A DNA stretch of 64,000 nucleotides. It comes from Nitrospira sp. (GTDB lineage: Bacteria; Nitrospirota; Nitrospiria; Nitrospirales; Nitrospiraceae). The notes beneath the pieces were generated by a model, which saw only the letters and a program-made list of their open reading frames with translations, ran no database searches and was not told where the DNA came from. Shown piece after piece: positions 5,855-62,256 of this stretch; positions within the stretch are counted from its first letter, which is position 1, and every line of letters begins with the position of its first letter. A program made the position numbers and the translations under genes. The stretch covers positions 1 through 64,000 of the forward strand of contig VGXB01000006.1 of NCBI GenBank assembly GCA_016873515.1, given 5' to 3'.

Positions 5855-5905
5855 TGGTTAATAGCCCTCAGCAACCAGCGATGACTCACACTGAGAGCTG
5901 ATTGC
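5855..5905. repeat. Degenerate short-word intergenic element, inverted arms (TCAGCAACCAGCGATGACTCA / AGAGCTGATTGCTGATGACT)
   Basis: Read directly. Confidence 0.5.
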
Positions 5906-5918
5906 TGATGACTACGAG

Positions 5919-7169
5919 TTACTTCCTCACCGCTATTCCATGCGCGTCGGCGGTTTCTTTGCCCTCTTTCATGTTTGTGATGGCAACCTGGCCCTTGTAG
6001 TGGCCGACTCGTCCTTCTGCATCCACATGGATCACACCCACGCCAGGAATCGTCCCCTTGGCATTGTGGGCATCCTTGTCGTTGCCGGTGAGCGGGGTCT
6101 GTCCACGCAGAGTCACAAAGACATACTGGCCGTCCGGTGCCACATCCATCAGGTCCGGAGCCGGGTCCGCGTTGGCGCCCGTTGTTAGATCGATCGCTCC
6201 GACGCTCAAGTTACTTAGCGTATCGATGATCTCGACGTTGTTGCCGGCCCGATCCGCATTCCACACATACCGGCCGACGGCGACCATGCCGTGTGAGTCG
6301 GCGAACTGATCGTCACGCTGGGAAATGAGCTTGGCCGAAATTGATTTCGGCAAGTTCGTCATGTCAAGCGCATAGACAGCATAGGACAACGGCGCGATGG
6401 GCCAGCCGCCGCCGGAATTGATATACATCGTCCCACCGGACTCGATCCCACCGCAACCGGCTGGATGGACTTGGTTATTATCCAACGTCGCCACGACCTT
6501 CATGGGGGTCACAGTCACATCCACTACCAGCAGCCCGCCCCCCCGGAGTGTGATGAAGGCATACCGGCTCGTCGATTCGGTGATTGGGCAGATCGGCGAG
6601 GCATCCGGCCGCTCGCCGCCTTCGAATGACGCCAGATTAAGGACATCCTTTTCAGGATCGGAACTAAACTTATGCGCCGCATAGTCGGTCCAGATGCGGA
6701 TGAACTTCTTATCGGCGATGTTGGCGACGATGGCCATGTTCTGATTTGGCGTCGGCCAGGCTGCGTGTGCGTTCTTGCCCATCAACAGGCAGGCGTCCGG
6801 TTTCTTGGTGGCCGCATCCATGAACAGCACGTGGCCGCTCAAGAACGAGATGATGACGTGATCTTGCGCCGCATTGAAAAAGACCATGTGCGGACGACGG
6901 ACCGCTTTCTTTGTGGCGGTTTCACAGAATGTGCCGATCTCTCCGGCCAGATCGATCGTTTGAGCCGGTTTGGCAGAAGTGAGATTCGCCACGAGCGAAC
7001 TACCATCGAAAATGTGGAGATAGCCCCCGCTTTCCTTCCCAGTATCCGATTGATCGGCCACCCAGACCTCATAGGCCTGTGCCGCAGGCGCAGCCCCAAT
7101 CGATGCAATCAGCACGGCCACCAGGCAGATCAAACGGCCCGGTGCGATAGAATTCCTGAGGTGCGTCAT
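5919..7169 (-). CDS. Secreted beta-propeller-like (YncE-type) protein
   Basis: Signal peptide; repeated blade-like segments (ISFLSGHVLFMDAATKKP, VFVTLRGQTPLTGND). Confidence 0.55.
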   Translation of the reverse strand: MTHLRNSIAPGRLICLVAVLIASIGAAPAAQAYEVWVADQSDTGKESGGYLHIFDGSSLVANLTSAKPAQTIDLAGEIGTFCETATKKAVRRPHMVFFNAAQDHVIISFLSGHVLFMDAATKKPDACLLMGKNAHAAWPTPNQNMAIVANIADKKFIRIWTDYAAHKFSSDPEKDVLNLASFEGGERPDASPICPITESTSRYAFITLRGGGLLVVDVTVTPMKVVATLDNNQVHPAGCGGIESGGTMYINSGGGWPIAPLSYAVYALDMTNLPKSISAKLISQRDDQFADSHGMVAVGRYVWNADRAGNNVEIIDTLSNLSVGAIDLTTGANADPAPDLMDVAPDGQYVFVTLRGQTPLTGNDKDAHNAKGTIPGVGVIHVDAEGRVGHYKGQVAITNMKEGKETADAHGIAVRK

Positions 7170-7335
7170 AACGGCCTCCAAGATGGATGAACAATGCCGA
7201 GATTGTTGCTCATATTGAACTGTTTTACGTCCGGTTTCCAGAGGGGCTCTGAAGAATGGACCCTGCGTTGACGCTGTAAAAAACCCTGTGCTAGCTTATT
7301 TGGTTGATCGACTGCTTCTTGGGAAGAACACTGGA

Positions 7336-8421
7336 ATGACCGATCGGGTTGCTGAACAGATTGCCGCCCTGCGGGATGACGATTGGGCCATTCGGGAAGA
7401 AGCCGCGACCCTCCTGGGTGAGCTAAATGATCCGCGCGCGGTCGATCCGTTGGTGTCAGTCCTGCGCGACCAAGATCGCTCCGTGCGTGACGCGGCTATT
7501 GGCGCCTTGACATCCATCGGGGCTCCGTCCGTAATGGCTTTGGGCATATGCTTAACCGATCCGGAACTGTCGGTGCAAGAAGCAGCCTCGGCAGCCCTCG
7601 CATCGATCGCGGATGCCCGTGTATTGAACCATCTCCTGGACGCCTTGCGCAGCCAGGACTGGATCGTCCGGATGCATGCGGCCAAAGCCCTCGGACGCAT
7701 CAAGGACTCTAGATCAGTTCGCGCGTTGGTACCATTGCTTCAAGATAAGGTCAAAGCGGTTCGGGAAGCGGTGTCGTTGACGTTGGCAGCCATCGGCGAA
7801 TCCGCCATGCCCGCCCTACTAGAATCGTTGATCCATCCGGATTGGTTGGTGCGCCTGCATGCGGTGGAGGCCTTAGGGAAGACCCGGTCGCGTGAAGCGG
7901 TCGAGCCGCTCCTGAAAGTCTTGTTCAACGACGAAGACTCCGCTGTGCGCGAAGATACCCTACGTGCCTTGGGCTTAATCGGAGACCCGCGCGCCGTCGA
8001 ATATCTGTTCACCGCGATGAATGATCCGGCACATCGCGTGTTGGCCATCGAGGCTCTAGGACATATCGGGGATCGCCGGGCTGTACCCGTATTGATCCAG
8101 GTCGTCAAAGGGACCAATTCTCCGGTAAGATCGCGGACGGTTGCAAGCTGCGGGAGTGCCTGGAGTGAGGAAACCGTGGCCCAAGCTGCCGCGGTGCGAG
8201 CATTAGGTGTGATCAACGATACCACGGCACTCCCGACCTTAGTGGGTGCGCTCCAGTCGACGTTCACAAGGACCGAAGCAGCGGCCGCGCTGGTCACGTT
8301 CGGCTTGAAGATCGTCCCGTTGCTCATCCCGTTACTCGCTGAATCGACGGATGACAATGTCCGCTATCATGTGAGGGAAACTCTGACGGCTGTGGGATGG
8401 AGAGGCAAAAACTCGAAATAG
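7336..8421 (+). CDS. HEAT-repeat protein
   Basis: Repeats such as ALRDDDWAIREEAATLLGELNDPRAVDPLVSVL. Confidence 0.9.
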   Translation: MTDRVAEQIAALRDDDWAIREEAATLLGELNDPRAVDPLVSVLRDQDRSVRDAAIGALTSIGAPSVMALGICLTDPELSVQEAASAALASIADARVLNHLLDALRSQDWIVRMHAAKALGRIKDSRSVRALVPLLQDKVKAVREAVSLTLAAIGESAMPALLESLIHPDWLVRLHAVEALGKTRSREAVEPLLKVLFNDEDSAVREDTLRALGLIGDPRAVEYLFTAMNDPAHRVLAIEALGHIGDRRAVPVLIQVVKGTNSPVRSRTVASCGSAWSEETVAQAAAVRALGVINDTTALPTLVGALQSTFTRTEAAAALVTFGLKIVPLLIPLLAESTDDNVRYHVRETLTAVGWRGKNSK

Positions 8422-8465
8422 TGATAAGTGTTGAATTGTGAATTTTGGGTTGTGCGTTGTAAGTC
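8421..8465. repeat. Degenerate short-word intergenic element (AAGTGTTGAATTGTGAATTTTGGGTTGTGCGTTGT)
   Basis: Read directly. Confidence 0.45.
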
Positions 8466-14315: not shown

Positions 14316-14665
14316 TGGTGGAGGCGAGGGGAGTTGAACCCCTGTCCGAAGATCGTCAGTGCACTGTGTCTACATGTGTAGCCGATAGTTTGAGTTTCGC
14401 AGCCGTCCACGCCCATCGGCAGGCTTAGAACAACCGCTAGCCCAGAAAGTTCTCATCCTGGCCGCTGAGCACCGGCCTGGGACCAGCCCGCTGCATCGCG
14501 CCGTTCCACCCCCGCGGGCCTCAGATGGAACGACGTCTCAGCCTAAATTAGGCTGCGAGTGCCAGTTCTTGATTGGCAGTTGCGTTTTCTCGGACTTTTA
14601 CGAGTTCCCGAGAGCTCGACATGCGACAGTGACCTCAGTATCCCCGTCGAAACCGGTCGCCCCCC
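14316..14665 (-). ncRNA. ssrA: tmRNA (transfer-messenger RNA)
   Basis: 3' end CTTCGGACAGGGGTTCAACTCCCCTCGCCTCCACCA; 5' GGGGGCGACCGGTTTCGACGGGG; internal tag reading frame ending ...ELALAA-stop. Confidence 0.95.
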
Positions 14666-14670
14666 TTTCG

Positions 14671-14752
14671 TGAATTGCGTGAAACGTAAGACGTAAAACG
14701 TAAGAGGTTTCAAGCCCTGTAAGGATTCGTCATATCCTTTTACGTTTTACGG
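14671..14752. repeat. Degenerate short-word element (GTGAAACGTAAGACGTAAAACGTAAG ... CTTTTACGTTTTACG), inverted arms
   Basis: Read directly; arms 14691-14706 and 14737-14751. Confidence 0.6.
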
Positions 14753-25574: not shown

Positions 25575-26174
25575 ATGAATCTTCGATATCTGTTTCTCGT
25601 CATTCCTCTATTCGCTACGTGTGCCTTTCCAAGTATCTCCTGGGCAGAAGAGTCTCCTGAACTCAAAGAACTCAGAACACTATGCGACCAAGGCAATACG
25701 ATAGTGTGTGGTGCGCTTGGTGTGCTGTATAAAAACAGCACAGGCGTTACACAAGACCTGTTTCAGGCGGCAGCGTTCTTTCGTAAAGCGTGTGACGGAG
25801 GATCGGCGAAAGGGTGTAACAATTTGGGTCTGATGTATGAAGATGGCAGAGGCCTCCGACAAGATTTTGTTGAGGCGGTAGCGTTGTTTCGTAAAGCGTG
25901 TGACGGGGGCGAGGCGACAGGGTGTACCAGTCTGGGTCTGATGTATGAAAAAGGAGAGGGCATCAGACAAGACTTGCTTGAGGCAGTACAGTTGTTTCGC
26001 AAAGCGTGTGACCTGAGATCGGCGTCAACGTGTTGGTATCTTGGTAATATATATGAATACGGAAAAGGTGTCAGACAAAGCAACACTGACGCACTGAACT
26101 ATTTCGGTAAAGCTTGTGACATGAAAGAAGAGTTAGGGTGCGTGAACTATGCACGAATGAAGAGCAATAAGTGA
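25575..26174 (+). CDS. Sel1-repeat protein (secreted)
   Basis: Signal peptide; 36-aa units AVALFRKACDGG-A-GC--LGLMYE-G-G-RQD. Confidence 0.9.
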   Translation: MNLRYLFLVIPLFATCAFPSISWAEESPELKELRTLCDQGNTIVCGALGVLYKNSTGVTQDLFQAAAFFRKACDGGSAKGCNNLGLMYEDGRGLRQDFVEAVALFRKACDGGEATGCTSLGLMYEKGEGIRQDLLEAVQLFRKACDLRSASTCWYLGNIYEYGKGVRQSNTDALNYFGKACDMKEELGCVNYARMKSNK

Positions 26175-32714: not shown

Positions 32715-34232
32715 ATGGCCTCATTGTCACCGACTGGACCGTTCTGTCCGCCACCTCAGATCGAACCGGCACTCAATCGCTGCACGACTGTTCGTGCAGG
32801 ATTATCCGAGGCAGGCCTATTTGCCTCCGCTAGGCATAGGGTCATCGAGGACATTGTCTCCAGTGCGCACGCTGCGACGTTCTGGCGAATCAGTCCAAGC
32901 CCACTGATGCTTTCTCAGGAGCAGCTCACATTCTTCGTCCAGCTGGGACCGCAACTTTTGTCGTTTTACCGGGCGCTGAACCGCCTCTATCATGAAAGTG
33001 TCAAAGGTGCTCAACCGACCTGGGTGGCAAGTTGGTTGGATCAGGGCAAGCCCGATGCGCTGGTGAACTACAGCCGAATGAAACGGTTCCGCGACTCGGT
33101 GCCCCATGTCATTCGGCCGGACGTGATTCCGACACAAGACGGAATGGTGATTACCGAACTGGATTCGGTACCCGGCGGTATTGGATTGACTGCTGCCATG
33201 AGCCGAATTTACGCCGATCTTGTATCCGAGTTCTCAGCCCTCAGCCCTCAGTCCTGTTACGACCTTGTTGGTGGCCGGGACGGCATGGTACGCGGCTTTG
33301 GTGCCATGCTCCGGTCAGCGCAGAAGGACCAGACCGGGTGCGTCGCCATCGTGGTGTCCGAGGAAGCGAAGGATTATCTGCCGGAAATGACCTGGCTGGC
33401 CGCGCAACTTCGCGAGCAGGGATTGCTGGTTTGGTGCGTCGAGCCCCGCGCAATCCGCTTCACTGAAGACGGACTTCGCCTCTCTGTGAATAACAGCGAA
33501 CAGGCCATCGGCCTGATCTACCGATTCTACGAACTATTCGACCTGCTGAATATTCCCAAGGCCGAATTGGTTCAATATGCCGTAAAGAAAGAACGGGTGA
33601 CCGTCACACCGCCATACAAACCAGCGTTGGAGGAAAAATCCGCCTTTGCCTTGCTACATCATCCCGTCTTGTCCCCCTTCTGGAGCAAGGAACTCGGCCC
33701 AGACGACTTCCTGCAGCTGACCACGATCATGCCAAAAACCTGGCTGCTTGACCCCTCACCGATTCCTCCAATGGCCACGATCCCCGGCCTCTACGTCGGG
33801 GAACGTGCGGTTGCGAGTTGGAGCGGTCTAGAGACCGCTACACAAAAGGAACGGCACTTCGTGATCAAACCCTCTGGCTTTTCCGAACTGGCATGGGGCA
33901 GCCGAGGCGTCTCGATTGGGCATGACCTGCCGCAGGCTGAATGGGTCGATACGCTCCGGAATGCACTGGCCTCATTCCCGACAACGCCCTATCTCTTGCA
34001 GGAATTTCACAAAGGCCGGCTGTTCGAGATGGATTACTTGGACGAGGGGACAAACAGGTTGACCCATATGGCCGGTCGAGCACGGCTTTCACCATATTAT
34101 TTCGTCACTGGCGAAAAGGTGGAGTTGGCTGGTATCCTGGCCACCATCTGTCCGGCCGACAAGAAGATTCTTCACGGCATGAAAGACGCGATCATGGTAC
34201 CGTGTGCCGTCTTAACGGACAATGTTCAATGA
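32715..34232 (+). CDS. Hypothetical ATP-grasp-like protein
   Basis: VITELDSVPGGIGLT; HFVIKPSGFSELAWGSRGVSIG; YLLQEFHKGRLFEMDYLDE. Confidence 0.55.
   Translation: MASLSPTGPFCPPPQIEPALNRCTTVRAGLSEAGLFASARHRVIEDIVSSAHAATFWRISPSPLMLSQEQLTFFVQLGPQLLSFYRALNRLYHESVKGAQPTWVASWLDQGKPDALVNYSRMKRFRDSVPHVIRPDVIPTQDGMVITELDSVPGGIGLTAAMSRIYADLVSEFSALSPQSCYDLVGGRDGMVRGFGAMLRSAQKDQTGCVAIVVSEEAKDYLPEMTWLAAQLREQGLLVWCVEPRAIRFTEDGLRLSVNNSEQAIGLIYRFYELFDLLNIPKAELVQYAVKKERVTVTPPYKPALEEKSAFALLHHPVLSPFWSKELGPDDFLQLTTIMPKTWLLDPSPIPPMATIPGLYVGERAVASWSGLETATQKERHFVIKPSGFSELAWGSRGVSIGHDLPQAEWVDTLRNALASFPTTPYLLQEFHKGRLFEMDYLDEGTNRLTHMAGRARLSPYYFVTGEKVELAGILATICPADKKILHGMKDAIMVPCAVLTDNVQ
33231..33255. repeat. Degenerate short-word element inside the ATP-grasp-like ORF (TTCTCAGCCCTCAGCCCTCAGTCCTG)
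   Basis: Read directly. Confidence 0.55.
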
Positions 34233-34325
34233 TAAATGGTGACTGGTCAATTGCAGGTGACGGACACTGGATGCCCAAACTCTTCATTCAACATTCATAA
34301 TTCAACATTTAAGATTACGCATCGA
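34228..34325. repeat. Degenerate short-word intergenic element (TTCATTCAACATTCATAATTCAACATTTAAG)
   Basis: Read directly. Confidence 0.5.
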
Positions 34326-38151: not shown

Positions 38152-38904
38152 ATGCCGGCTTTTAACCCCAGTCCCCAGTCCTCAGTCCTGGGTACTGCTT
38201 TGGTAATTTTCGCCAAAGCGCCAATTCCCGGCCAGGTCAAAACACGCCTCTGCCCTCCGCTGACACCTGACGAGGCCGCGACACTCCACGGCAGCTTCGT
38301 CCTGGACACGTTGGAACGGACCAAGGCTGCGGTCACCACATTCAAATTGCCACTCGATCGTTACCTTGCCTGCTCGCCGGCTTCCACTCACGTCTTTTTC
38401 AGAATCATGGAAGAGCGGCAGGACATGAGATTGTTGGATCAAGTGGGCAAGGATCTCGGGGCGAGGATGAATCAGACCTTCGAGACTCTGTTCGCGCGGG
38501 GCTACACGCGTGGAGTGATTGTCGGAACCGATACCCCATCGCTGCCGCTTGAACGGTATCGGCAAGCTCTTGCCGCATTGGAATCGCATGATTTGGTACT
38601 GGGGCCAGCCCTTGATGGCGGTTATTATCTGATCGGCCTCAATCGGCCGATTCCCGATCTCTTCACAGCGATCCCCTGGTCCACCAACCAGGTGATTGCC
38701 TTAACACAAGAGAAGGCCAGAGCGCTTGGACTCACGATAGCCCTCCTTGAGTCATGGCGCGACGTCGATACCATCAGTGATCTGGACGAGCTCATTGAGG
38801 CCAGCGTGCTCGATGCCAAGAAGCCAAAGCGCGATCAGTCGTTTTCGAACCGCACGGCAGGAGCACTCCAACTTCTCGCCAAACGTCTGCGTTCTAGAGC
38901 ATAA
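38152..38904 (+). CDS. TIGR04282/DUF2064-family glycosyltransferase-like protein
   Basis: LVIFAKAPIPGQVKTRL; VIVGTDTPSLP; LGPALDGGYYLIGL. Confidence 0.9.
   Translation: MPAFNPSPQSSVLGTALVIFAKAPIPGQVKTRLCPPLTPDEAATLHGSFVLDTLERTKAAVTTFKLPLDRYLACSPASTHVFFRIMEERQDMRLLDQVGKDLGARMNQTFETLFARGYTRGVIVGTDTPSLPLERYRQALAALESHDLVLGPALDGGYYLIGLNRPIPDLFTAIPWSTNQVIALTQEKARALGLTIALLESWRDVDTISDLDELIEASVLDAKKPKRDQSFSNRTAGALQLLAKRLRSRA
38166..38195. repeat. Degenerate short-word element at the start of the TIGR04282-like ORF (CCCAGTCCCCAGTCCTCAGTCCTGGG)
   Basis: Read directly. Confidence 0.55.
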
Positions 38905-47163: not shown

Positions 47164-47303
47164 TCTCTACCTCTTCATTCTTGAAGACGGTGGCGGGGGC
47201 GCTTCTCACTGCGCGCATCCACCGAGCACCGCCTGATATCTGGCAAATTAAATTGATCTTGTGTGCGCGGTGGGCGAGCACGAGAAAGACCCTGCCGCCA
47301 TCC

Positions 47304-48887
47304 CTATCCCGCTTTTCTGGTATACGCCGGCAGGATCATGGGCGAGATGACACCGCTGACATTCCCGTGCTTCTTGGCTTCCGTTCTGAATCGTTCAAGA
47401 TGTTGCAAGGTCAGCTTACCTTGCGTGATCGACCCGGTCCGAGATGCGGCAGTCAAGCCTGACCGCTTGCCGAACACCATCAAATCAAGCAGCGAGTTGC
47501 CCATCAATCGATTCCGCCCATGCAACCCGCCCGAGGCTTCGCCGGCCACAAATAGATTTCTCACGTTCGTTTCTGAATTTGTATCGATCTTCACGCCGCC
47601 GTTTTGATAATGGAGCGTCGGATAGATGAGTACCGGATCTTTGCTGATATCGATCCCGAATCGCTCAAACTGGAGCATCATGGCAGGGAAATGCCTCTCG
47701 ACCGTGCCAGGCCCGTGTTCAGCATCCAACAGCGGCGTGTCCAGCCAGACCCCGACACGACCTGACATCGTCCGGATGCCTCGCCCCTCTTCGCACTCAC
47801 GGATGATCGAGGATGAAACCACGTCGCGCGTATCGAGTTCGTTCACAAACCGTTCCCCCTTGGCGTTGACCAGTTGCCCGCCCTCGGACCGAATGCCTTC
47901 CGTCACCAAGGCCCCGATCAATTGTTCGGGATAGACCGCACCGGACGGGTGATATTGGAACGTGTCAATGTGGTCGAGCTTCGCGCCCATCCGATACGAA
48001 AGACACAAACCGTCGCCCGTTGCCCCATAATGGTTGCTGGTGGGAAATCCTTGAATGTGCAGCCGCCCGATGCCACCAGTGGCCAGAATGACTGATTTGG
48101 CTGCGACGATGACATGCTGCTGATTGTCCAGATCCTTGAGCACGGCACCGGTGCACCGCCCATCCTCGTCACTGAGTAGTTCGACCGCCGCGCAGAACTC
48201 CAGGAGCTGGATCTTCTGGTTGATGACCTCGTCCTTAAGTACCCGCATAATTTCCAGGCCGGTATAGTCGGAGCAGGTCAGCAGACGGGGCTTAGAGCTG
48301 CCACCGCCTTTCTTGACGTGCAAATTGCCGTCGGCCTGCCGATCGAACAACACGCCGAGTTCGATCAGCCATTTGGCAATCGACGGACCTTCCTCGACCA
48401 TCACCTTGAGCAGATCATGGTCGTTGTGCATGTGGCCACCCTTGAGCGTATCGATGAAATGAGTGACCGGCGAGTCCTCCGGCGCCACGGACACCTGCAT
48501 CCCACCCTGGGCCATCACGCTGTTCGAATCACCCAAACGTAGCTTTGTCGCAAGAATCGTCTTGGCGCCAGCTCCGTGTGCATGTAGCGCGGCTGCGCAG
48601 CCGGCACCACCACCACCGATCACGAGTACATCCGTTGTATGGTGGGGAGTCAGATCAGCAGAGTCATCGAGGGAGCTATCGCCCTCAAGCAAGGTCGCCA
48701 ACTCGACGACGGTCTTGTCGCCTTCGTTTGGTCCGAATCGGATCGGCCGATAGGCACTGGCTCGCCAGTCCGGGTGATACTTGCGAATCAGTTGATCGCG
48801 GTCAGCAGGAGAAAACTTGGCGATCGTTTGCTTGCGGCGCGCGTCCCTGGTCTGATGCACGATTTGTTGAAGCGCGTGGATATCCAT
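47304..48887 (-). CDS. frdA: Fumarate reductase/succinate dehydrogenase-type flavoprotein
   Basis: VLVIGGGGAGCAAALHA; HPSGAVYPEQLIGALVTEGIRSEGG; EASGGLHGRNRLMGNSLLD. Confidence 0.9.
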   Translation of the reverse strand: MDIHALQQIVHQTRDARRKQTIAKFSPADRDQLIRKYHPDWRASAYRPIRFGPNEGDKTVVELATLLEGDSSLDDSADLTPHHTTDVLVIGGGGAGCAAALHAHGAGAKTILATKLRLGDSNSVMAQGGMQVSVAPEDSPVTHFIDTLKGGHMHNDHDLLKVMVEEGPSIAKWLIELGVLFDRQADGNLHVKKGGGSSKPRLLTCSDYTGLEIMRVLKDEVINQKIQLLEFCAAVELLSDEDGRCTGAVLKDLDNQQHVIVAAKSVILATGGIGRLHIQGFPTSNHYGATGDGLCLSYRMGAKLDHIDTFQYHPSGAVYPEQLIGALVTEGIRSEGGQLVNAKGERFVNELDTRDVVSSSIIRECEEGRGIRTMSGRVGVWLDTPLLDAEHGPGTVERHFPAMMLQFERFGIDISKDPVLIYPTLHYQNGGVKIDTNSETNVRNLFVAGEASGGLHGRNRLMGNSLLDLMVFGKRSGLTAASRTGSITQGKLTLQHLERFRTEAKKHGNVSGVISPMILPAYTRKAG

Positions 48888-48900
48888 AGAGATACGATCA

Positions 48901-49010
48901 ATGGGTAACGGTTGATGGTTGATGGTTCATGAACAAGAAATTCCTGCAGTAAACCCTACCGGCCTGGGTTTTTCCCCATTGACCATTTGCCATTGTCCGT
49001 TAACTATAGG
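48901..49010. repeat. Degenerate short-word element with inverted arms (GGTTGATGGTTGATGGTT ... CATTGACCATTTGCCATTGTCC)
   Basis: Read directly. Confidence 0.6.
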
Positions 49011-49721
49011 CTACTTCACGGTTGCACAATACTCCGCCAGTTCCTTCTCGTTCATCGCCAGAATCTTCCTCCACTCATCGTTGAAGCGGCCGTCCGTGAT
49101 CTCCTTGATGCGCGTGTCGAGTCGAGCGGGCTTCGCTGTGAAATGCACCCCTTGCGCTCGGCTGACATAGAGCGCCACCAAATTGGGGGCAATATCGGCG
49201 ATACAGACCGGCGTGCACAGGCCGCACATGACGCAATCCATGAACATTTCCGAGACACTCTGGAAGTCGCCGAAGACTGCCTTCCACACCCCTTCACGCA
49301 CGTCGATCTTCTGCGGACAGGCTTCGGTGCACGCGTTGCAATTCCGGCAAAGTGGAGCTTCGGGATACAGATTGAAGAGATCTTGCTTGGGGTCTTGCAG
49401 CTTCTGAATATCGTACAGCGCCTTGCGCGCCGGGAATGGCGGCATCATGGTAAACGACATCCCATCCTGAACCGCCGTCTGACAAGCCAAGCACGTTCTG
49501 ACCTTCGGATCATCCTTGGTCCGATAGTAGGTTGCGCAGGCCCCGCAAAACCCACCGAGGCAACCCACGCCGCGTACAACTTCCTGACCGGCATACCACA
49601 TGGCCTTGATGACGGTGACCCCTTCCGGCACCTCGTACTTCTTGCCGGAAATGTCGATCGTCACCATCCGAGGTTTGAGCACCTCAGGCTGATCGATTAC
49701 GTTGATATCTTCTTGGTTCAT
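49011..49721 (-). CDS. frdB: Fumarate reductase/succinate dehydrogenase-type iron-sulfur protein
   Basis: GCLGGFCGACATYYR...C, then CRNCNACTEACP and CVMCGLCTPVC. Confidence 0.9.
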   Translation of the reverse strand: MNQEDINVIDQPEVLKPRMVTIDISGKKYEVPEGVTVIKAMWYAGQEVVRGVGCLGGFCGACATYYRTKDDPKVRTCLACQTAVQDGMSFTMMPPFPARKALYDIQKLQDPKQDLFNLYPEAPLCRNCNACTEACPQKIDVREGVWKAVFGDFQSVSEMFMDCVMCGLCTPVCIADIAPNLVALYVSRAQGVHFTAKPARLDTRIKEITDGRFNDEWRKILAMNEKELAEYCATVK

Positions 49722-49736
49722 TGTTCCTTCATGAAG

Positions 49737-49803
49737 CGTGAAGCGTTAGGCGTGAGGAGTGAAATGAAATCTCCCTCACACCTGACACCTACTCCTTAAC
49801 GCC
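49737..49803. repeat. Degenerate short-word element with inverted arms (GAAGCGTTAGGCGTGAGGAGTGA / TCACACCTGACACCTACTCCTTAACGCC)
   Basis: Read directly. Confidence 0.6.
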
Positions 49804-49806
49804 ATT

Positions 49807-54310
<4,504 letters not shown>

Positions 54311-54330
54311 CACTCTCTCCTTACAAGCGA

Positions 54331-54400
54331 GCCAGGATTCTGATGCCAGAAGCCAGAGAGGCACTCTCTCAAGCCACACATCAGTCACCAGTCTCTGGTT
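54331..54400. repeat. Degenerate short-word element with inverted arms (CTGATGCCAGAAGCCAGAGAG / ACATCAGTCACCAGTCTCTGG)
   Basis: Read directly. Confidence 0.5.
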
Positions 54401-54430
54401 AGAGCGGCCCTTCCCACCACTCAGCGAGCG

Positions 54431-54507
54431 GCAGGACCTCCCGCAGTTATTTCAACGGGGCACTTCCCGCGACTATTTTAACGGCGGGACCTCCCGCCGT
54501 TTGGGCG
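54431..54507. repeat. Degenerate 26-28-bp tandem repeat, about three copies, spanning the aclA 3' end
   Basis: gcaggacctcccgcagttatttcaacgg / ggcacttcccgcgactattttaacgg / cgggacctcccgccgtttgggcg. Confidence 0.7.
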
Positions 54508-56293
54508 CGGCGTAATTCACCAAGTAATCGAACAGCCGGATCAAGCGGCTATCCTGGCGCTTTTGATCGACCCAGTGACCAATCAATCCGATCGTGCGCG
54601 ACAAGATAAAGAAGCCATTCAAACTGTCGATCGGGAACCCCAGGTCGACCAGTACGGCTGCCATTGTGCCATCCACATTCAAAATCAAATTATCTTTCTT
54701 CGCCGCCGTAACCTGCTCAACTTGCAAGGCAAAATCGAGACACGGCGTCTTGATGCTCAGGTTCTTCACATAGCCCACGAGCTCTTTCACACGCTTGTCC
54801 GGATTGCGCAGACTCTTCACGCGGTGACCGATGCCGGGGACAGGGCCCACATTCTTCTTCATGTACGCCAAGAACTCGTCTACGTTCATCTTGTTGTCCA
54901 CCGCATACTTGAACCAGCGGCCGGCGTCCGTTACAGCGCCGCCGAATCGGGGCCCGATCATAATGAGACCAGCCGCCACCGCTTGGGAGAGACCGATCCC
55001 GGCGCAAGCTGCTAAAATCGTCGCATACGCGCCACTCACACAGGGACCGTGATCCGCCGAGAGCATCATGATGCGCTTGATGATTTCGGCTTCCTGCTCG
55101 GAGATGAGCCGCTTATCCCACAACAGACCGATGACATGCGGAATTTCATAGCCCTTATTGATGAGTTCGGAGGCCGGATAGCCGTCATAGCAGGGTTCGT
55201 CGCCACGGTCGTCGCTGATGGTAGTACGGATCAGCGGTGCGACAATGACTTCGTCCGCCTTCATCGCCTCTTCGACCGTCTTGGGCAATTTCGGCAGGGT
55301 TACTGGCTCAACGATCTCCTTGACCTGCCCAGACTTCAGCAGTTCCTGGTAGGTCTCCTTGATCGCCGGGCCCAAGGCCCCGAATGTTGCAGGGACGATG
55401 GCGCCGGCTTTCTTGAGTGCGTCCGACTTGGAGCGGGCTGACCCTTCACCCTTCATGCCTTCCTTTGCACCGGCATGGCCGAACTTCATACCCTTCGGCA
55501 AGCTTTCTTGGCAGAATCCGGAAACGACACCGATCAACTTGACCCGGCGCTTCTTGGCTCCATACCATTCGGCCGCCCGCTCTTCGAGATCCCCCCCCAT
55601 CTCGCCGACGATCACGACTGCTTTGGTCTGCAGATCGTTCTCGAACATTTCCAGATAATTGACATAGTCGGTGCCGGGATAAGCATCGCCCCCGATCCCG
55701 ATCGCCGTCGTAATGCCATCCGCGAATTGTGAGCAGATCCAGATGATTTCGTTGGAAAGCCCGCCAGACTTGGTGATGACGCCAAATGACCCTTCGCGGT
55801 AGAGCTTGGAGAGCACCAGATTGTCGAATGCCCCGCCGATCACACCCAGACGGCAGGAGCCTGCAGAGATGATTCCAATCGAAGAGGGCCCATTAAACAC
55901 CTTGCCCAATTTACGCGCATGAAAACCGAGGATCTTCGCGTCCTTTTCAGGCACACCCTCGGTGATCATCGACACGACCTTGATATGGGAATCGTCGAGC
56001 GCTTCCATGCCACCCTTCATTGCGCGATCCGCGCCGATGTAGACCAAGCTGGTGTTGATCGTCGAATGGTGCTTCGTTGCTTCGGCGATCGTCTTATAGA
56101 TCGGGATCGCCAGCAACCCACTGCCGTAGGGAATTTCGTTGGCCTTGCCGGCATCGGGAGGATAGACGAACGCTTCGACATTGAGTGGGCGCTTGATCAA
56201 GTAGCAGAACTCCGCCATCCGGCGGGCTGCATTGACCCCTGCTTGGCCGCCCTGAATCACCACCCGGGTGTCTTTGTTAGCCAAAATACTCAT
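54473..56293 (-). CDS. aclA: ATP-citrate lyase, large (alpha) subunit
   Basis: 606 aa; SucD-like N-half plus citrate-synthase-like C-half (GPCVSGAYATILAACAGIGLSQAVAAGL). Confidence 0.95.
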   Translation of the reverse strand: MSILANKDTRVVIQGGQAGVNAARRMAEFCYLIKRPLNVEAFVYPPDAGKANEIPYGSGLLAIPIYKTIAEATKHHSTINTSLVYIGADRAMKGGMEALDDSHIKVVSMITEGVPEKDAKILGFHARKLGKVFNGPSSIGIISAGSCRLGVIGGAFDNLVLSKLYREGSFGVITKSGGLSNEIIWICSQFADGITTAIGIGGDAYPGTDYVNYLEMFENDLQTKAVVIVGEMGGDLEERAAEWYGAKKRRVKLIGVVSGFCQESLPKGMKFGHAGAKEGMKGEGSARSKSDALKKAGAIVPATFGALGPAIKETYQELLKSGQVKEIVEPVTLPKLPKTVEEAMKADEVIVAPLIRTTISDDRGDEPCYDGYPASELINKGYEIPHVIGLLWDKRLISEQEAEIIKRIMMLSADHGPCVSGAYATILAACAGIGLSQAVAAGLIMIGPRFGGAVTDAGRWFKYAVDNKMNVDEFLAYMKKNVGPVPGIGHRVKSLRNPDKRVKELVGYVKNLSIKTPCLDFALQVEQVTAAKKDNLILNVDGTMAAVLVDLGFPIDSLNGFFILSRTIGLIGHWVDQKRQDSRLIRLFDYLVNYAAPKRREVPPLK

Positions 56294-56310
56294 CGAAATC
56301 TCCTCTTTCG

Positions 56311-56390
56311 TTCAGGACTAAGTGTTGAGGACTGAGGGCCAAGTGAACGCCCTCCAAATCAGCTCAGTCCACAGTCCTGAGTCCTCGTGA
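56311..56390. repeat. Degenerate short-word element with inverted arms (GGACTAAGTGTTGAGGACTGAG / CTCAGTCCACAGTCCTGAGTCC)
   Basis: Read directly. Confidence 0.65.
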
Positions 56391-57587
56391 CTATTTCTGC
56401 AGTGCTTTATCGACGATGTCCGTCAGCGGAGTGTAGCGATCGAAGACGTTGATATCGAAACCTTCGTCTTTTAGCGCGCGCATGGCGTCGAGCCCTTCTT
56501 TCTCTCGCGGCCCGCCGCGGCGTACCCAAATCTTGACGTCCCTCAATTTGCCGTCGCTCTTCGCCTTGCGGAATCCGTTGATGATGCCACCAAACGTCTT
56601 TTTGACGTCGGTGAAATTGGCAATGGCGCCGCCGACGATGATATTTTTGATGCCGGGCAAAGAACAAATTTTCTCCGTCAGCACTTCGACGGCCCAATCG
56701 GGAGGATCACCCGAATACTCGGCATAATTCGCCAACTTACCGCCGCGCGCGACTACGGCATCGGAATAATATACGCTCGCGCCACCACCGGCCGGAAGCA
56801 TCGCCGTATCACCGCCGGGAATTTCGATGAACTTAACCGAACCCTTGATCTTGCTGTCCACTGCCATCACTTCCAGCTCTTCCTTGCTGTAGGCACGACC
56901 AAACTCGGCGGCAAAGGCAAAGTTCCAATCGAGGTGGCGGAACTTGGCGTCGCCGTCAAGCAACGTGACTGCATCGAGCGCCACGAATGCTCCATCGCTC
57001 TCGCGAGTGACGACGGGATTCACTTCGAGGTACTGCGCATCTTCACTGTCAAAGCAGGCAAACATCTTCCCGGCAAAGTCGGCCATCTTCTTGACGAGCA
57101 GCCCGGTAAAACCCGCGTCCTTCGCCAGCTGCTCCAGCGGCTCTTGAGAAGGAGTCTGTCCGACTTCGAGACAGAGGCGCTTCACACGATCCCAATTGGA
57201 TTCAACTTCGATCCCGCCGCAATTGGCGACGAGAATTTCCGTGCCTTCGCGGGTGGATTTCACCGCACAATAATATTCTTCCTTGTGGGCAATCATTTCG
57301 GACACGATGACTTGCGAGACTGTGATGCTGCCGACATGACGACCGATCATCTCTTTCGTGGCGGCGACAGCACCGCTGAGATCGAGACCGACCTTCACGA
57401 GCCCTAGCTTAAACCTCGAGCCGAGCGCTTCGTGGGCTTTTGCCACAAGCTTCGACGCCTTCATCCAATCATTGGCTTGTCCCAACTTTGCAAGTTCGTC
57501 TGCAGAAGTGACTACCACATAATTGGGAACGTGGATACCCCACTTTTTCATCAGCCCCATCCCGGGGCCCTCTAACACCTTGGCCAT
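56391..57587 (-). CDS. aclB: ATP-citrate lyase, small (beta) subunit
   Basis: 398-aa SucC-like ATP-grasp protein adjacent to aclA. Confidence 0.95.
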   Translation of the reverse strand: MAKVLEGPGMGLMKKWGIHVPNYVVVTSADELAKLGQANDWMKASKLVAKAHEALGSRFKLGLVKVGLDLSGAVAATKEMIGRHVGSITVSQVIVSEMIAHKEEYYCAVKSTREGTEILVANCGGIEVESNWDRVKRLCLEVGQTPSQEPLEQLAKDAGFTGLLVKKMADFAGKMFACFDSEDAQYLEVNPVVTRESDGAFVALDAVTLLDGDAKFRHLDWNFAFAAEFGRAYSKEELEVMAVDSKIKGSVKFIEIPGGDTAMLPAGGGASVYYSDAVVARGGKLANYAEYSGDPPDWAVEVLTEKICSLPGIKNIIVGGAIANFTDVKKTFGGIINGFRKAKSDGKLRDVKIWVRRGGPREKEGLDAMRALKDEGFDINVFDRYTPLTDIVDKALQK

Positions 57588-57787
57588 GACTCACTCCTTC
57601 AATTGTGTAATACGCCGCTGCAAGGGGAGAAGTATTTTAACGAAATCGCCTTGATGGCTCAAGATACCAAAAGGACTATTTGTGGTGAGGTTCAAAAGGC
57701 CCAGTGACACATCTGGAAAGCTTGATCCAACACCAAAGAATTGCAACCTATTGCCTTGAGACGGTTTTTTCACTTTCGCGTGAGAAT

Positions 57788-58627
57788 TCACCGCCACCTT
57801 CGAGGATTCTGACATTGGGGGCAAAAGAATGCACTGCGTTCGCTTTGGAGGCGGCGAATCATTCGCCCACAGCGGTTGGGACATGGCTGATCTTCTTTTC
57901 CATACACGAGATGATGTTGCTTGAACTGCCCCTCGGTTCCATCAGGCGCGAAGAAATCTTTCACACTCGATCCTCCGCAGGCGATGGCGCTGCGCAACAC
58001 CTCTTGCGTCACATGATAGAGCTGTTCAACTCGTGTGGAGGAAAGACGGCTCGCCATCACATTGGGATGCAGTCCGGCTCGAAAGAGAATCTCATTTGCA
58101 TAGATATTGCCAATACCGGCCAGCGATTGCTGGTGCATCAACAAGGGCTTCAGCCTGCCTCTGTGGCTCGTGATGAGCCGAAGAAAGTCGTCGCATAATA
58201 CGGTCAACGGATCGCACCCAAAACGGCGGGCGCAATATTGATCCAGCTCTGATTGATCAAAAAACGAGAATCGGCCAAATCGGCGCGGATTCCAATAGCG
58301 CACTTCCGGTTCCCGACCACCGGTGAACGCCATCCGAACATGCACGTGCTGCGGATGCTTGGTCTGTGCTGATCGGAATAGGAGCAACCCCGTCATGCCC
58401 AATTCAGCTACGGCATACCGCACGTCCCGTTGTTTGACGAACCGAAGGGCCACGCTCTTGCCATACCGATCGACTTGCTGCAACACAGATCCCGCGTACC
58501 AAGGAAGCGAGGAAAGCCCTTCTCGAACGATATCCTTCCGGCCCACCCAGCAGTCGGTGACCTCCGCTCCAACCAGCGCGACTCGCAGTTGGCACGCCAC
58601 GACTTCAGCCTCGGGCAATTCCGGCAT
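57788..58627 (-). CDS. mutM: Formamidopyrimidine-DNA glycosylase (Fpg/MutM family)
   Basis: MPELPEAEVV N-terminus; C-terminal zinc finger CPNRC...CPQC. Confidence 0.93.
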   Translation of the reverse strand: MPELPEAEVVACQLRVALVGAEVTDCWVGRKDIVREGLSSLPWYAGSVLQQVDRYGKSVALRFVKQRDVRYAVAELGMTGLLLFRSAQTKHPQHVHVRMAFTGGREPEVRYWNPRRFGRFSFFDQSELDQYCARRFGCDPLTVLCDDFLRLITSHRGRLKPLLMHQQSLAGIGNIYANEILFRAGLHPNVMASRLSSTRVEQLYHVTQEVLRSAIACGGSSVKDFFAPDGTEGQFKQHHLVYGKEDQPCPNRCGRMIRRLQSERSAFFCPQCQNPRRWR

Positions 58628-58711
58628 GTCGGCAGTTCCTCAGCAAACCATAATTAGGCCACAGGTGTGCGGATAAAGACAATGTACGAAAGAGTGAGCG
58701 CAAGAAGCCGA

Positions 58712-59122
58712 CTACGCGGCTTTGTGAAGTGCGAGAACACGTTTGATCGTGGATTCGAGGTTCGGGAGCAGCATGACACCGAGACGGCGGGTCATGACCA
58801 GCCTCAGTACATCGGCATAGGCCATGTTTTCTACGCAATACAAATAGGCCATCACCACTGAAACGGATCGGCGCATTCCGGTACGGCAACAGACCAAGAC
58901 TGGATTTTGCACGATATGCCACTCCACCCACCGAACAGCCTCGGCCAATCGCCTTGGATTCGCCTTACCGAAATCCTTGAATGGAATCTTGCCGTAAGCG
59001 AGTCAAGTCATCGCCTCGACCGTGTATTCTTCGGTCACCAACAACAGCGCACCGCTTTGGACAGGCAGTTGCATGAGATCGTTGATGTTCCCAACAAACA
59101 ATTGGTCTGTAACGAGATTCAT
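58712..59122 (-). pseudogene. Dual-specificity protein phosphatase with one in-frame TGA
   Basis: Readthrough MNLVTDQLFVGNINDL...VEAMT*LAYGKIPFKDFGKANPRRLAEAVRWVEWHIVQNPVLVCCRTGMRRSVSVVMAYLYCVE. Confidence 0.75.
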
Positions 59123-59250
59123 TGTCTGCTCAGTGAAGCACTCTGCTTGAAAGATCAAGCATCAATCAGATCCACACAGTTGCAGTCTGTTTCCAGAGAC
59201 CGCTATACTGAACCCTATTACACACAGGGAAAATCGGCAGGGCATCCTCG

Positions 59251-59610
59251 ATGGTTACACTAACCCAGCAGGAAGTGGAGCGGCGCCTCAGTACCGTGCC
59301 CTGCGCTATCTGTAAACAGTCCAACTTTGCCATCGACGAACGATTCATGGGGACCGACGGGGACTGGCGGGGTCTCTGCAAGAAGTGCTTTTATACCTTT
59401 CCGGTCTATACCGACGCAGAGTTTTACTTGCGCACGCAACCGGATGTGCCGTATCGGCTGAAAGAGGTGTCCTGCACTGCCTGCAACCATCAGGGAGTCA
59501 GTCTGGACTTCCGGGCCACGATGTCCGTACGCGACGCCTATTATTTTGTGACCTGCCAAACCTGCAAGCGGCAGTTTACGGAGAAATCATCGCTGGAAGC
59601 ATACGAATAA
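59251..59610 (+). CDS. Hypothetical protein with multiple CxxC motifs (zinc-ribbon-like)
   Basis: CAICKQ, CKKC, CTACNH, CQTCKR. Confidence 0.75.
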   Translation: MVTLTQQEVERRLSTVPCAICKQSNFAIDERFMGTDGDWRGLCKKCFYTFPVYTDAEFYLRTQPDVPYRLKEVSCTACNHQGVSLDFRATMSVRDAYYFVTCQTCKRQFTEKSSLEAYE

Positions 59611-59648
59611 CTCAGCACGCCCCAGCGATACTAGGGTATAGTGGCCAT

Positions 59649-59831
59649 ATGACTGACACACCTAAACAGACCGAACCCACTACTCCGGAAACCACGCCCA
59701 AGATGAGAAAAGAGCTTCCGCTCATCTCCGTCCCGGACGACCGCGACATGATCGCTGAAGAAATGGCCGAGCTGTTTGAGGAAGACAAAGTCTCCCACCA
59801 ACATGGCAGCTCAGAGCCGGAAGCGGATTAA
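59649..59831 (+). CDS. Small acidic hypothetical protein
   Basis: ATG at 59649, 60 aa. Confidence 0.55.
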   Translation: MTDTPKQTEPTTPETTPKMRKELPLISVPDDRDMIAEEMAELFEEDKVSHQHGSSEPEAD

Positions 59832-59834
59832 GCC

Positions 59835-59870
59835 TCGTCAAACGTCATCTGTCAACCGTCAATCGTAAAA
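59835..59870. repeat. Degenerate short-word intergenic element (CGTCAAACGTCATCTGTCAACCGTCAATCG)
   Basis: Read directly. Confidence 0.5.
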
Positions 59871-59937
59871 TTCCGGCACCTTCCACATCACTCACAGCGC
59901 TGAGCACTCTTACTCTGTTCAACGCGTTGGCTCGACT

Positions 59938-60417
59938 GTGCTACGTCTCAGGCTGCTTGGCGTCGCAACCTTGCTGAGGTCACACTATGCTCAGCCTGAA
60001 CCTCGAACACGCGCCGCCATTGATCACGATCAGGGGCGCTTCGTAGCTGTACCTTTTCCGGTTATTGATTCTGCCGCTTATAAAAATTTGTCACATCCAG
60101 CAAGGTCTCTTTTAATTGAAATCGATTGACAGTACTGTTTTGATAACAACGGAAGATTGCTGGCATCGTATGCATTCTTGCGTAAACGTAGATGGACAAG
60201 TGCAGACACCATCACAAGAGCAAAACGTGAGTTACTAGCGGCTGGTTTCATTTACAAGACTGTTAAAGGTTGCCGTCCCAACAAGATAAGTTGGTATGCA
60301 GTCACTTGGCGTCCCATTGATCGCTTGCAAGGGTATGACGAAGGTGCAGTTCAATCATTTGTCAGAAGTGCTTACGCAAGAAATGCAGAACTTAAACCGG
60401 CTACCTGTCAATGTTGA
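59938..60417 (+). pseudogene. Plasmid/ICE-type DNA-binding or replication-associated protein remnant with in-frame TGA
   Basis: RFVAVPFPVIDSAAYKNLSHPARSLLIEID*QYCFDNNGRLLASYAFLRKRRWTSADTITRAKRELLAAGFIYKTVKGCRPNKISWYAVTW. Confidence 0.6.
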
Positions 60418-60747
60418 TCATCAATAATGCCGCCTCGCGGTCTAAGAACCACAGTTGCTAGACTTGCTGCCGATCTTATAAGTGATCTATTTGACGGAAC
60501 GGCTAGACTGTTACACGGAAACCATTTAGAAAAGTCATCTGTTGCCAGGCAGTGGAAATTAAATAAAGAGTCTTAGGTTTTACAGGGGCGAGCAACGTGA
60601 GGTTCTCTTGATGGCGCTGATGGTTCTTTGTGTGCCGATTAGGGCTATTTCACGCCATTTAAACCAATTCGAGTGGGTCGCCGCTACCGTCTCAGACTCA
60701 ACTTGACGATCCGCGCCGAACACGCACACCGTTCATCCAGACCTTCG

Positions 60748-61926
60748 TTAGACCGGACGAATAATCTTCACACCAGAACTTTGTTCAATCCGTCCTAACG
60801 CCGACACCTTACCATGTCGCTCTTTATGAACAATCCGTTCAATTTGTACAATCGCCCCGCGATGCCACTGACTAAATGCTTCGTTTTGCGGTGATGCGAG
60901 CCGATCTTGGCGACCCACCTCAGGCCTGCCTGTCTCATTGCATAACCAGGCCCGTTTCTCCCCCTTCATCTCCCGCAGCTCGCTCACCACTCGGTACACA
61001 TCCGGCCGCCGTTCGACAATCGTCTTGCCGTCTTTCCTCAGTAGCAAATAGGAGAATTTCAGCGCGTCTTTGATGAAGCCGACTTCCTTGTCCATCCGTT
61101 GAATCGATTCCGGTGTTTTCCATGTGCGTTCTTCATGGCACCAGTCGTGTGGATTGATCAACGCCGGGCAGCTGTTCTCATGAAAGCAGGGACTAAAGAC
61201 TGTGCAGATCCTTTCTTGAAGCAGCCGGTCACGCACCTGAAGCATCGCGCGCGACGTGTCCCGCAAGGCCGGCTCGACAATCATCATGGTGCCATGCGTA
61301 GCCAGCAGCATGAATGCCTCGGCCACCAGACGAGTCCGTGTCTCAATCGGATCCTTCGAGCCCACATACAGTTCGTTCAGACAATTAGCGAGAATGATGA
61401 GATCGAACGGAGCCTTTCCCCTTATTTGCGCTAACCATGTTCTTCGTTCGAGGTCTCCTTCGTACGTATATAGTCTCGCCTGGGTGATCCTTGTTGCTCG
61501 GCAGTACCCATTCCATAGCTGATTCGCTTGACGAATTGTCTCAGGCACATTATCCAGCGCCACGACGGAGAGTGCGGACGAGAAGCGACGGCGATACCAC
61601 CAGTCGAGTACGGCTAGCGCTCCCGTTCCAGGCCCAGAGCCGAGATCCAACACAGAGAATCGACGGCTGTCTTCAGGGACAGGCATCTCATCAAGTAAGA
61701 TCTGGATCTTCGATAGGTTAACTGGAAGAAAGTACCTCAGATACGCGGCTGCTAGGATAGGATCATCCAAATAGGCCCGGCTGATCGCGTCCCGTTCCCT
61801 GGTAAAGAGCCGCGAGAGTCCAGCTACGGCCTGCACGAATCGAGCATCTGACATCGCCTTCACAGAAAGAATCTCCTCGATGACTTGGAGTAATAGCGAG
61901 GAGACTGTGGCGTTGTGGCGTTGCAT
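60748..61926 (-). CDS. Rsm22-family (mitoribosome small-subunit-type) methyltransferase-like protein
   Basis: YLRYFLPVNLSKIQILLDEMP; VLDLGSGPGTGALAVLDWW; HENSCPALINPHDWCHEERTW. Confidence 0.8.
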   Translation of the reverse strand: MQRHNATVSSLLLQVIEEILSVKAMSDARFVQAVAGLSRLFTRERDAISRAYLDDPILAAAYLRYFLPVNLSKIQILLDEMPVPEDSRRFSVLDLGSGPGTGALAVLDWWYRRRFSSALSVVALDNVPETIRQANQLWNGYCRATRITQARLYTYEGDLERRTWLAQIRGKAPFDLIILANCLNELYVGSKDPIETRTRLVAEAFMLLATHGTMMIVEPALRDTSRAMLQVRDRLLQERICTVFSPCFHENSCPALINPHDWCHEERTWKTPESIQRMDKEVGFIKDALKFSYLLLRKDGKTIVERRPDVYRVVSELREMKGEKRAWLCNETGRPEVGRQDRLASPQNEAFSQWHRGAIVQIERIVHKERHGKVSALGRIEQSSGVKIIRPV

Positions 61927-61937
61927 AAGCCTAGTGT

Positions 61938-62213
61938 ATGCTCACCGCATCAGGGAGGACAACTATGACAGACGACATTATGAAGGCCTACAAAGACGTC
62001 GAATCAGCGGTGGAGCGCTATATCAGGCTTCTCCACGATCACGTGTCCATGTTGCAGAACATCGAACCACCTGGATCCGACAAGGTCATACGGCTGACGG
62101 CGGGATCAAAGGCCATGACGGACAGTGCGTCGATCTATCTCTCCTATGCCAAATACGTGGCCTACGGCATGCCGATGAGCGAAGAAATGGTGGAGGATGA
62201 GATACAGAGCTAG
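61938..62213 (+). CDS. Small hypothetical protein
   Basis: 91-aa ORF, divergent from the Rsm22-like gene. Confidence 0.6.
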   Translation: MLTASGRTTMTDDIMKAYKDVESAVERYIRLLHDHVSMLQNIEPPGSDKVIRLTAGSKAMTDSASIYLSYAKYVAYGMPMSEEMVEDEIQS

Positions 62214-62214
62214 T

Positions 62215-62256
62215 GATGGGCCATTAGCTTTCAGCTGATAGCTGTTGGCTGAAGGC
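62215..62256. repeat. Degenerate short-word intergenic element (TTAGCTTTCAGCTGATAGCTGTTGGCTGA)
   Basis: Read directly. Confidence 0.5.

What the first reader, a model, noticed from the sequence alone, without database searches (positions are those of the whole stretch)
5855..62256. Dispersed family of locus-specific degenerate short-word elements
At least 12 sites (5855, 8421, 14671, 33231, 34228, 38166, 48901, 49737, 54331, 56311, 59835, 62215) hold a degenerate tandem of a 6-9 nt word. The word differs by locus: GTCCTCA, GTGAAGC, ATGGTTG, AGCTGAT, CATTCAA, ACGTAAA, GTCAACC. The common feature is architecture, not sequence, so similarity-based repeat finders may miss the family. Four lie in consecutive rTCA-cluster gaps (frdA/frdB, frdB/icd, acn/aclA, aclA/aclB). 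They look like neither CRISPRs, REPs nor IS ends. Mechanism and function are unknown.
Basis: partly seen in the sequence, partly recalled or inferred. Interest (0 to 1): 0.75.

Follow-up and report, generated by a model that had tools for sequence, protein, structure and literature searches.

The report
Locus-specific seven-base repeat hairpins
Many gaps between genes in this Nitrospira-like genome hold a small hairpin built from a sloppy tandem repeat of exactly seven bases; related species keep a hairpin at the same place but spell it with a different seven-base word, so the shape seems to matter more than the sequence, although what it does is still unproven.

Summary
All 12 sites have period exactly 7 as their best period: 10 clearly beyond chance, 5855 weak, 54331 not significant. 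In 831 kb of the genome there are 54 such arrays against 2 in simulation; 44 are intergenic, with fewest in divergent gaps. The arrays usually have an inverted partner made of the same locus-specific word, giving stem-loops that often abut stop codons. At the same rTCA gaps, congeneric species carry different words, or no element, around the same hairpin design, and one site shows strong arm covariation. Two listed sites lie inside coding sequence. The genome has no detectable Y1 transposase or reverse transcriptase, so REPIN/RAYT mobility is excluded by that criterion. The closest known things are heptanucleotide repeats: cyanobacterial STRR, Beggiatoaceae TAACTGA and Xanthomonas GGGAATC inverted pairs. 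Best reading: slippage-renewed intercistronic hairpins acting like REP-type mRNA decay barriers; neutral slippage products are a serious rival. A new variant of a known kind.

The parts
5891..5909 (.). weak heptad array (CTGAGAGCTGATTGCTGAT) in a convergent gap after the + gene 5384-5818
   Evidence: period-7 score 8, local p=0.018; borderline
8420..8460 (.). degenerate heptad array directly after the stop codon of 7288-8421; no inverted partner found
   Evidence: score 14; inverted-partner rank 0.70
14678..14708 (.). heptad arm ACGTAAG/ACGTAAA, just upstream of the tmRNA gene (14316-14664, -)
   Evidence: score 14; inverted partner beats about 95% of swapped flanks; tmRNA by Rfam
14736..14752 (.). 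inverted partner arm (CCTTTTACGTTTTACGG) of 14678-14708
   Evidence: sequence; 15/16 inverted identity
33233..33255 (+). heptads CTCAGCC inside a coding sequence: in-frame stretch SALSPQS of a 505-aa protein
   Evidence: score 14; 8-residue gap in most congeneric orthologues
34220..34247 (.). left arm (CAATGTTCAATGATAAATGG...) overlapping the stop of 32907-34232
   Evidence: score 11; inverted partner beats all swapped flanks
34285..34316 (.). right arm (CATTCAACATTCATAATTCAACATT)
   Evidence: score 13; inverted partner score 31
38166..38197 (+). heptads CCCCAGT encoding the variable N-terminus (NPSPQSSVLG) of a TIGR04282-family protein
   Evidence: score 17; N-terminus variable among orthologues; family
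48900..48931 (.). frdA/frdB gap, arm 1 (GGTTGAT words)
   Evidence: score 15; gap is empty or holds other words in relatives
48976..49001 (.). frdA/frdB gap, arm 2 (CCATTGACCATTTGCCATTGTCC)
   Evidence: score 9; inverted to arm 1
49732..49762 (.). frdB/icd gap, arm 1 (TGAAGCG words)
   Evidence: score 18 for 49710-49762; TRF 49732-49763
49776..49802 (.). frdB/icd gap, arm 2 (TCACACCTGACACCTACTCCTTAACGC)
   Evidence: 20/27 inverted identity; RNA fold z -3.8 for the gap
56314..56336 (.). aclA/aclB gap, arm 1 (AGGACTAAGTGTTGAGGACTGAG)
   Evidence: inverted arms; covariation across 10 species at this gap
56363..56385 (.). aclA/aclB gap, arm 2 (CTCAGTCCACAGTCCTGAGTCCT)
   Evidence: score 10 for 56365-56385
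59836..59869 (.). heptad array CGTCAAC 4 nt after the stop of the + gene ending at 59831; no inverted partner
   Evidence: score 13; partner rank 1.00
62226..62259 (.). heptad array AGCTGAT 12 nt after a stop codon, upstream of a separate intrinsic terminator (62267-62301)
   Evidence: score 11; terminator scan; a GTGAAGC-word hairpin sits at the same gap in G005

Best explanation
These are heptad hairpins: non-coding elements of about 60-100 bp with two inverted arms, each made of a few degenerate copies of one seven-base word, a word that differs from locus to locus but usually carries a TGA core. Shown: period 7, excess over chance, intergenic enrichment, inverted locus-matched arms, and replacement of the word at orthologous gaps while a hairpin stays. 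Inferred: (1) arrays grow, shrink and homogenise by slippage in 7-nt steps on both arms, with no dedicated transposase; (2) between co-directional genes the hairpin is transcribed and acts as a stem-loop next to the stop codon of the upstream cistron, in the manner of REP elements, as a barrier to 3'-5' mRNA decay that tunes expression of neighbouring cistrons; (3) because only stem and placement matter, the word is free to change.
For: Only period 7 is in excess. 54 arrays in 831 kb against 2 simulated; 44/54 intergenic where intergenic DNA is 15% (p about 7e-27); density per kb 0.42 in tandem, 0.37 in convergent, 0.16 in divergent gaps (divergent depletion p=0.027). The inverted partner in an array's own flank scores 23.2 against 15.7 in flanks of other loci, with no excess for direct partners (14.2 against 16.2). 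RNA folding of the frdB/icd gap is below dinucleotide shuffles in all 18 species tested (mean z -4.6, range -2.7 to -6.5), whatever the word. aclA/aclB in 10 species: 96.6% of cells paired, 15 double-sided changes against 6.0 in shuffles (0/500), all slid controls far lower. G031 against G018 at that gap: one 7-nt unit is missing from each arm. Words at one gap differ between species whose flanking proteins are about 82-97% identical. Elements lie between stop codon and ribosome binding site. Published precedent: E. coli intra-operon stem-loops without U tracts, as in malE-malF, protect the upstream gene (PMC5927463); Xanthomonas heptad repeats, often as inverted pairs, cluster by stop codons (PMC4692102).
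Against: No expression, mRNA-decay or binding data. Within hairpins, permuting the order of heptads gives almost the same inverted score (14.8 against 13.9; 16.3 against 16.1 in G190), so arm complementarity mostly follows from sharing a word, not from a fixed stem; the covariation could partly reflect whole-element replacement and relatedness. Some gaps are empty in relatives (7 of 20 for frdA/frdB, 3 of 20 for aclA/aclB), so no element is essential. Some arrays have no partner (8420, 59836). Two sit in coding sequence. A member of the same family (G192) does without heptads.
Confidence: 0.42

Rival explanations
1. Neutral or selfish slippage products: in lineages with a permissive replication/repair background, 7-nt slippage and template switching throw up heptad arrays and hairpins, which persist where they do least harm (between stop codon and next ribosome binding site) and have no function.
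For: Lineage on/off pattern: G190 has 48 arrays in 200 kb, G192 1 (1 expected), G022 0, and whole families of the phylum score near zero in the pattern census. Insertions inside coding sequence. Arm pairing is not register-specific. Presence/absence differs between congeners. Genomes with an SbcD of >=100 bits have fewer heptad hits (median 1 against 9, p=0.017; within-family p=0.029), but this threshold was chosen after seeing the data and the curated cut-off gives p=0.08 and 0.12.
Against: The TGA core and the strict limit to 7 nt are not expected from simple slippage. The frdB/icd gap folds strongly in all 18 species tested despite word change. Covariation at aclA/aclB.
Confidence: 0.36
2. 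REPIN/RAYT-like mobile elements copied by a Y1 (HUH) tyrosine transposase.
For: Short intergenic inverted doublets with presence/absence polymorphism resemble REPINs (PMC3116915).
Against: The window's genome (99.84% complete) has no Y1 transposase match, nor do the heptad-containing G118, G134, G163, G199 and G234. No reverse transcriptase in the window's genome either, and no association with one in the phylum. Elements at different loci are hardly more alike than word-permuted controls (18.3 against 16.8; 3 of 45 exceed).
Confidence: 0.03
3. Intrinsic transcription terminators or attenuators.
For: Stem-loops after stop codons; denser in tandem and convergent gaps.
Against: The terminator scan of 46000-63000 finds no U-tract terminator at a heptad element; at 62226 a separate canonical terminator follows at 62267, and relatives also have a heptad hairpin plus what looks like a separate terminator there. 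Three lie between genes of one rTCA cluster.
Confidence: 0.05
4. Binding sites for a translational or nucleoid protein that reads the heptads, as proposed for TAACTGA repeats in Beggiatoaceae.
For: The TGA core shared by words; [quoted passage not shown]
Against: Orientation of the TGA arm relative to the gene is mixed; words change wholesale at one gap; departures from TGA show no preference for stop codons (TCA 12, TTA 8, TAA 6); the core is not significant in arrays from other phyla (42 against null maximum 45).
Confidence: 0.1

Closest known systems
Heptameric GGGAATC repeats of Xanthomonas and GGGGA(C/T)T of Nostoc (PMC4692102)
   Same: Period 7, degenerate, mostly 4 or so units, about 90% intergenic, near stop codons, few between divergent genes, many as inverted pairs, prominent repeats not at the same genes in related species.
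   Different: There one G-rich word dominates and G-quadruplexes are proposed; here many words coexist, with a TGA core, and the word is specific to the locus.
TAACTGA direct repeats of Beggiatoaceae, Cyanobacteria and Bacteroidetes (PMC4679880)
   Same: Heptamers, intergenic, several phyla, 7-nt indels between strains, no known transfer mechanism.
   Different: There near-perfect copies of a single word, related words rarely repeat, mostly upstream of starts in one orientation; here degenerate, many words, inverted arms.
STRR (short tandemly repeated repetitive sequences) of heterocystous cyanobacteria, and long simple sequence repeats with heptamer excess (LSSR)
   Same: Heptanucleotide tandem repeats; the word CCCCAGT at 38166 is, from memory, an STRR word; heptamers were reported as the most abundant unit category in most genomes of the LSSR survey.
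   Different: From memory, described as perfect or near-perfect repeats in few fixed words; hairpin pairing and word turnover at fixed gaps not described in the texts read.
REP/BIME/REPIN elements
   Same: Short palindromic elements after stop codons and between operon genes; stem-loops that can stabilise upstream mRNA.
   Different: REPs are families of near-identical copies tied to RAYT transposases; neither holds here.

Membership tests
Heptanucleotide tandem repeats (LSSR/STRR-type) | tandem unit of exactly 7 nt in excess of chance | tested here: met
   only period 7 in strong excess in window and own genome
Heptanucleotide tandem repeats (LSSR/STRR-type) | predominantly intergenic | tested here: met
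   44 of 54 arrays in the 15% intergenic DNA
Heptanucleotide tandem repeats (LSSR/STRR-type) | one or a few fixed, near-perfect words per genome | tested here: not met
   many words, about 0.7-0.9 identity between successive units; so filed as a variant
Xanthomonas/Nostoc G-rich heptads | inverted pairs close to stop codons | tested here: met
   description
Xanthomonas/Nostoc G-rich heptads | GGGANTN-type unit able to form a G-quadruplex | tested here: not met
   core is N-T-G-A-N-G-R
REP/REPIN with RAYT | Y1 tyrosine transposase in the genome | tested here: not met
   no PF01797 match in G000 and several other genomes with heptads
REP/REPIN with RAYT | near-identical dispersed copies | tested here: not met
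   cross-locus similarity near word-permuted control
REP-like mRNA decay barrier (works like) | stem-loop between cistrons that protects the upstream mRNA | not testable with these tools
   structure supported; decay not measured
Intrinsic terminators | GC-rich stem followed by U tract | tested here: not met
   no terminator-like site at heptad elements in 46000-63000; separate terminator at 62267
Rfam-described structured RNAs | match above gathering score | tested here: not met
   only tmRNA found
Beggiatoaceae TAACTGA repeats | repeated TAACTGA word just upstream of start codons in one orientation | tested here: not met
   other words, both orientations

The most novel reading that the evidence does not exclude
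A class of hairpin elements under selection for structure and place only, whose seven-base word is continually regenerated and replaced by an unidentified, transposase-free process that is switched on in some lineages and off in close relatives, perhaps depending on the hairpin-repair background.
Probability: 0.17. Interest if true: 0.78.

Novelty: new variant of a known kind. Interest (0 to 1): 0.5.

Why it matters
Heptamer repeats have been reported in several phyla without an explanation. Here there is a comparative system that makes the question testable: orthologous operon gaps that are empty, or hold hairpins spelled with different words, in one genus, and a heptad-dense genome (G190) and a heptad-free one (G192) in one family. 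If the stems set cistron stoichiometry in the rTCA carbon-fixation operon, they are fast-evolving regulators invisible to sequence alignment. If not, they are a clean record of a 7-nt mutational process.

Tried and rejected
All-frame stop-codon idea (TGA every 7 nt gives stops in three frames): rejected, since departures from TGA favour TCA and TTA as much as TAA. Universal TGA core across phyla: not supported once seeded arrays are excluded. RAYT mobilisation: rejected. Reverse transcriptase involvement: no association, and several heptad-rich genomes lack it. SbcCD loss as permissive factor: suggestive only with a post hoc threshold, with a strong counter-example (G226). Precise palindromic duplication of one arm: mostly not supported, since heptad-order permutation scores alike; one exception at C7:41328-41398, 30/32. 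Copy-paste between loci: little sign. Intrinsic terminators: rejected where scanned. Literature searches found no description in Nitrospira in the library held; subscription papers are mostly missing from it.
Full report
WHAT WAS CHECKED. I scored self-matching at lags 5-10 around each site: the best period is 7 at all 12. Ten are clearly beyond 500 local shuffles, 5855 is weak (p=0.018) and 54331 is not significant (p=0.054). Across the window, period 7 gives 13, 10 and 8 segments at scores of at least 9, 11 and 13 against 2.3, 0.3 and 0 in first-order Markov simulations; no neighbouring period does this. In 831 kb of the same genome there are 54 arrays at a score of at least 11 against 2 simulated.

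WHERE THEY ARE. With gene models built for this purpose, 44 of 54 arrays are intergenic although intergenic DNA is 15% (p about 7e-27), and they are about 2.5 times rarer per kb in divergent (promoter) gaps than in tandem or convergent gaps (p=0.027 for divergent depletion). Many begin a few bases after a stop codon, and in operon gaps they fill the space between stop codon and the next ribosome binding site. The rTCA genes are confirmed by family searches: sucD, sucC, frdA-like, an Fe-S protein in the frdB position, monomeric icd, acn, aclA, aclB.

ARCHITECTURE. Most arrays have an inverted partner within 90 nt, made of the same word: own-flank inverted score 23.2 against 15.7 for flanks of other loci; direct partners show no excess. 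The gap RNAs fold better than dinucleotide shuffles, most clearly frdB/icd (mean z -4.6 over 18 species). Some arrays have no partner (8420, 59836). Pairing is largely word-level: permuting heptad order within an array changes the inverted score little, so I do not claim a fixed stem sequence.

SHARED CORE. An unsupervised fit of a 7-column profile to the 34 arrays first found gives N-T-G-A-N-G-R with log-likelihood 3.15 per array against a maximum of 2.36 in 20 column-permuted controls. In the larger set 42 of 54 arrays carry TGA at a constant phase against a maximum of 24 in controls. So the statement that only architecture is shared is wrong for this genus. In arrays from other phyla, away from the search seeds, TGA is not significant.

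TURNOVER AT ORTHOLOGOUS SITES. In 20 relatives the aclA/aclB gap holds hairpins with at least four word classes (GGACTGA, GTGCTGA, GCTGATA, GTGACGA) or is empty; frdB/icd holds GGCGTGA, GGACTGA or GGGGTGA words, occasionally another hairpin; frdA/frdB holds GGTTGAT/GGTCAAT, AAGTTGA, GCTGATG or GGGGTGA words or is empty in several species (classes assigned by inspection). The short icd/acn gap and the long gap between aclB (56391-57587) and gene 57788-58627 never carry one. Among ten species with related words at aclA/aclB, arms covary: 96.6% of cells paired, 15 double-sided changes against 6.0 in shuffles, slid controls far lower. G018 lacks one 7-nt unit in each arm relative to G031. Relatedness and whole-element replacement may contribute to these counts.

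CODING INSERTIONS. Site 33231 lies inside a 505-aa protein of unknown family: the heptads encode SALSPQS, within a stretch of about 8 residues that most congeneric orthologues lack. Site 38166 encodes the variable N-terminus of a TIGR04282-family protein.

DISTRIBUTION. A TGA-heptad pattern census of 198 Nitrospirota genomes shows strong lineage differences; the census pattern and its reversed control both catch heptads, so the counts are crude. Direct scans: G190 has 48 arrays in 200 kb (3 simulated), G192 1 (1 simulated), G022 0 (2 simulated). The pattern TGA(N4)x5 occurs in loci from Chloroflexi, Bacteroidota, Acidobacteria, Cyanobacteria, Planctomycetes, Verrucomicrobia and Proteobacteria.

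MECHANISM TESTS. The window's genome has no Y1 transposase and no reverse transcriptase; elements at different loci are not copies of each other. An SbcD link is only suggestive and was partly post hoc. No intrinsic terminator coincides with the elements where scanned, and at 62226 a separate one follows.

READING. The best reading is a locus-specific, slippage-renewed version of heptanucleotide repeats, arranged as hairpins and tolerated or used between genes like REP elements. E. coli stem-loops without U tracts that protect the upstream cistron are the precedent for function (PMC5927463); Xanthomonas heptad pairs near stop codons are the closest structural precedent (PMC4692102). Shown: period, excess, placement, inverted arms, core, turnover, absence of a transposase. 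Inferred: slippage as origin, mRNA decay barrier as function. Neutral persistence of slippage products is nearly as likely.

Noticed in passing
54429-54501 and the acn/aclA gap in relatives (L037, L041, L042): A different repeat, unit about 26 nt (CGGCGGGACCTCCCGC..TATTTCAA), at the 3' end of aclA, with differing copy number in relatives.
   Followed up: partly
47164-47303 (sucC/frdA gap) and relatives' sucD/sucC gaps: A second intercistronic hairpin element (CTGCGCGCATCCACCGAGCACC...GTGTGCGCGGTGGGCGAGCAC), with perhaps a few dispersed copies in the genome; in some relatives a heptad hairpin takes its place in the same gap.
   Followed up: partly
14316-14664 (-): tmRNA gene, with a heptad hairpin just upstream of its 5' end.
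   Followed up: partly
25751-26012: 108-bp tandem repeat, 2.4 copies, that looks like Sel1-type repeats of a protein-coding gene.
   Followed up: no
whole genome G000: 1.98 Mb at 99.84% completeness while near-complete congeners have 3-5 Mb: a strikingly small genome for the genus.
   Followed up: no
G190 (L306-L315): Extremely heptad-dense relative (48 arrays in 200 kb) with further words lacking TGA (GGCGAGA, CCCGCGC); the best genome for a follow-up.
   Followed up: partly
G000:C7:41328-41398: A hairpin whose arms match 30 of 32 although its heptads are degenerate: perhaps a recent inverted duplication.
   Followed up: no
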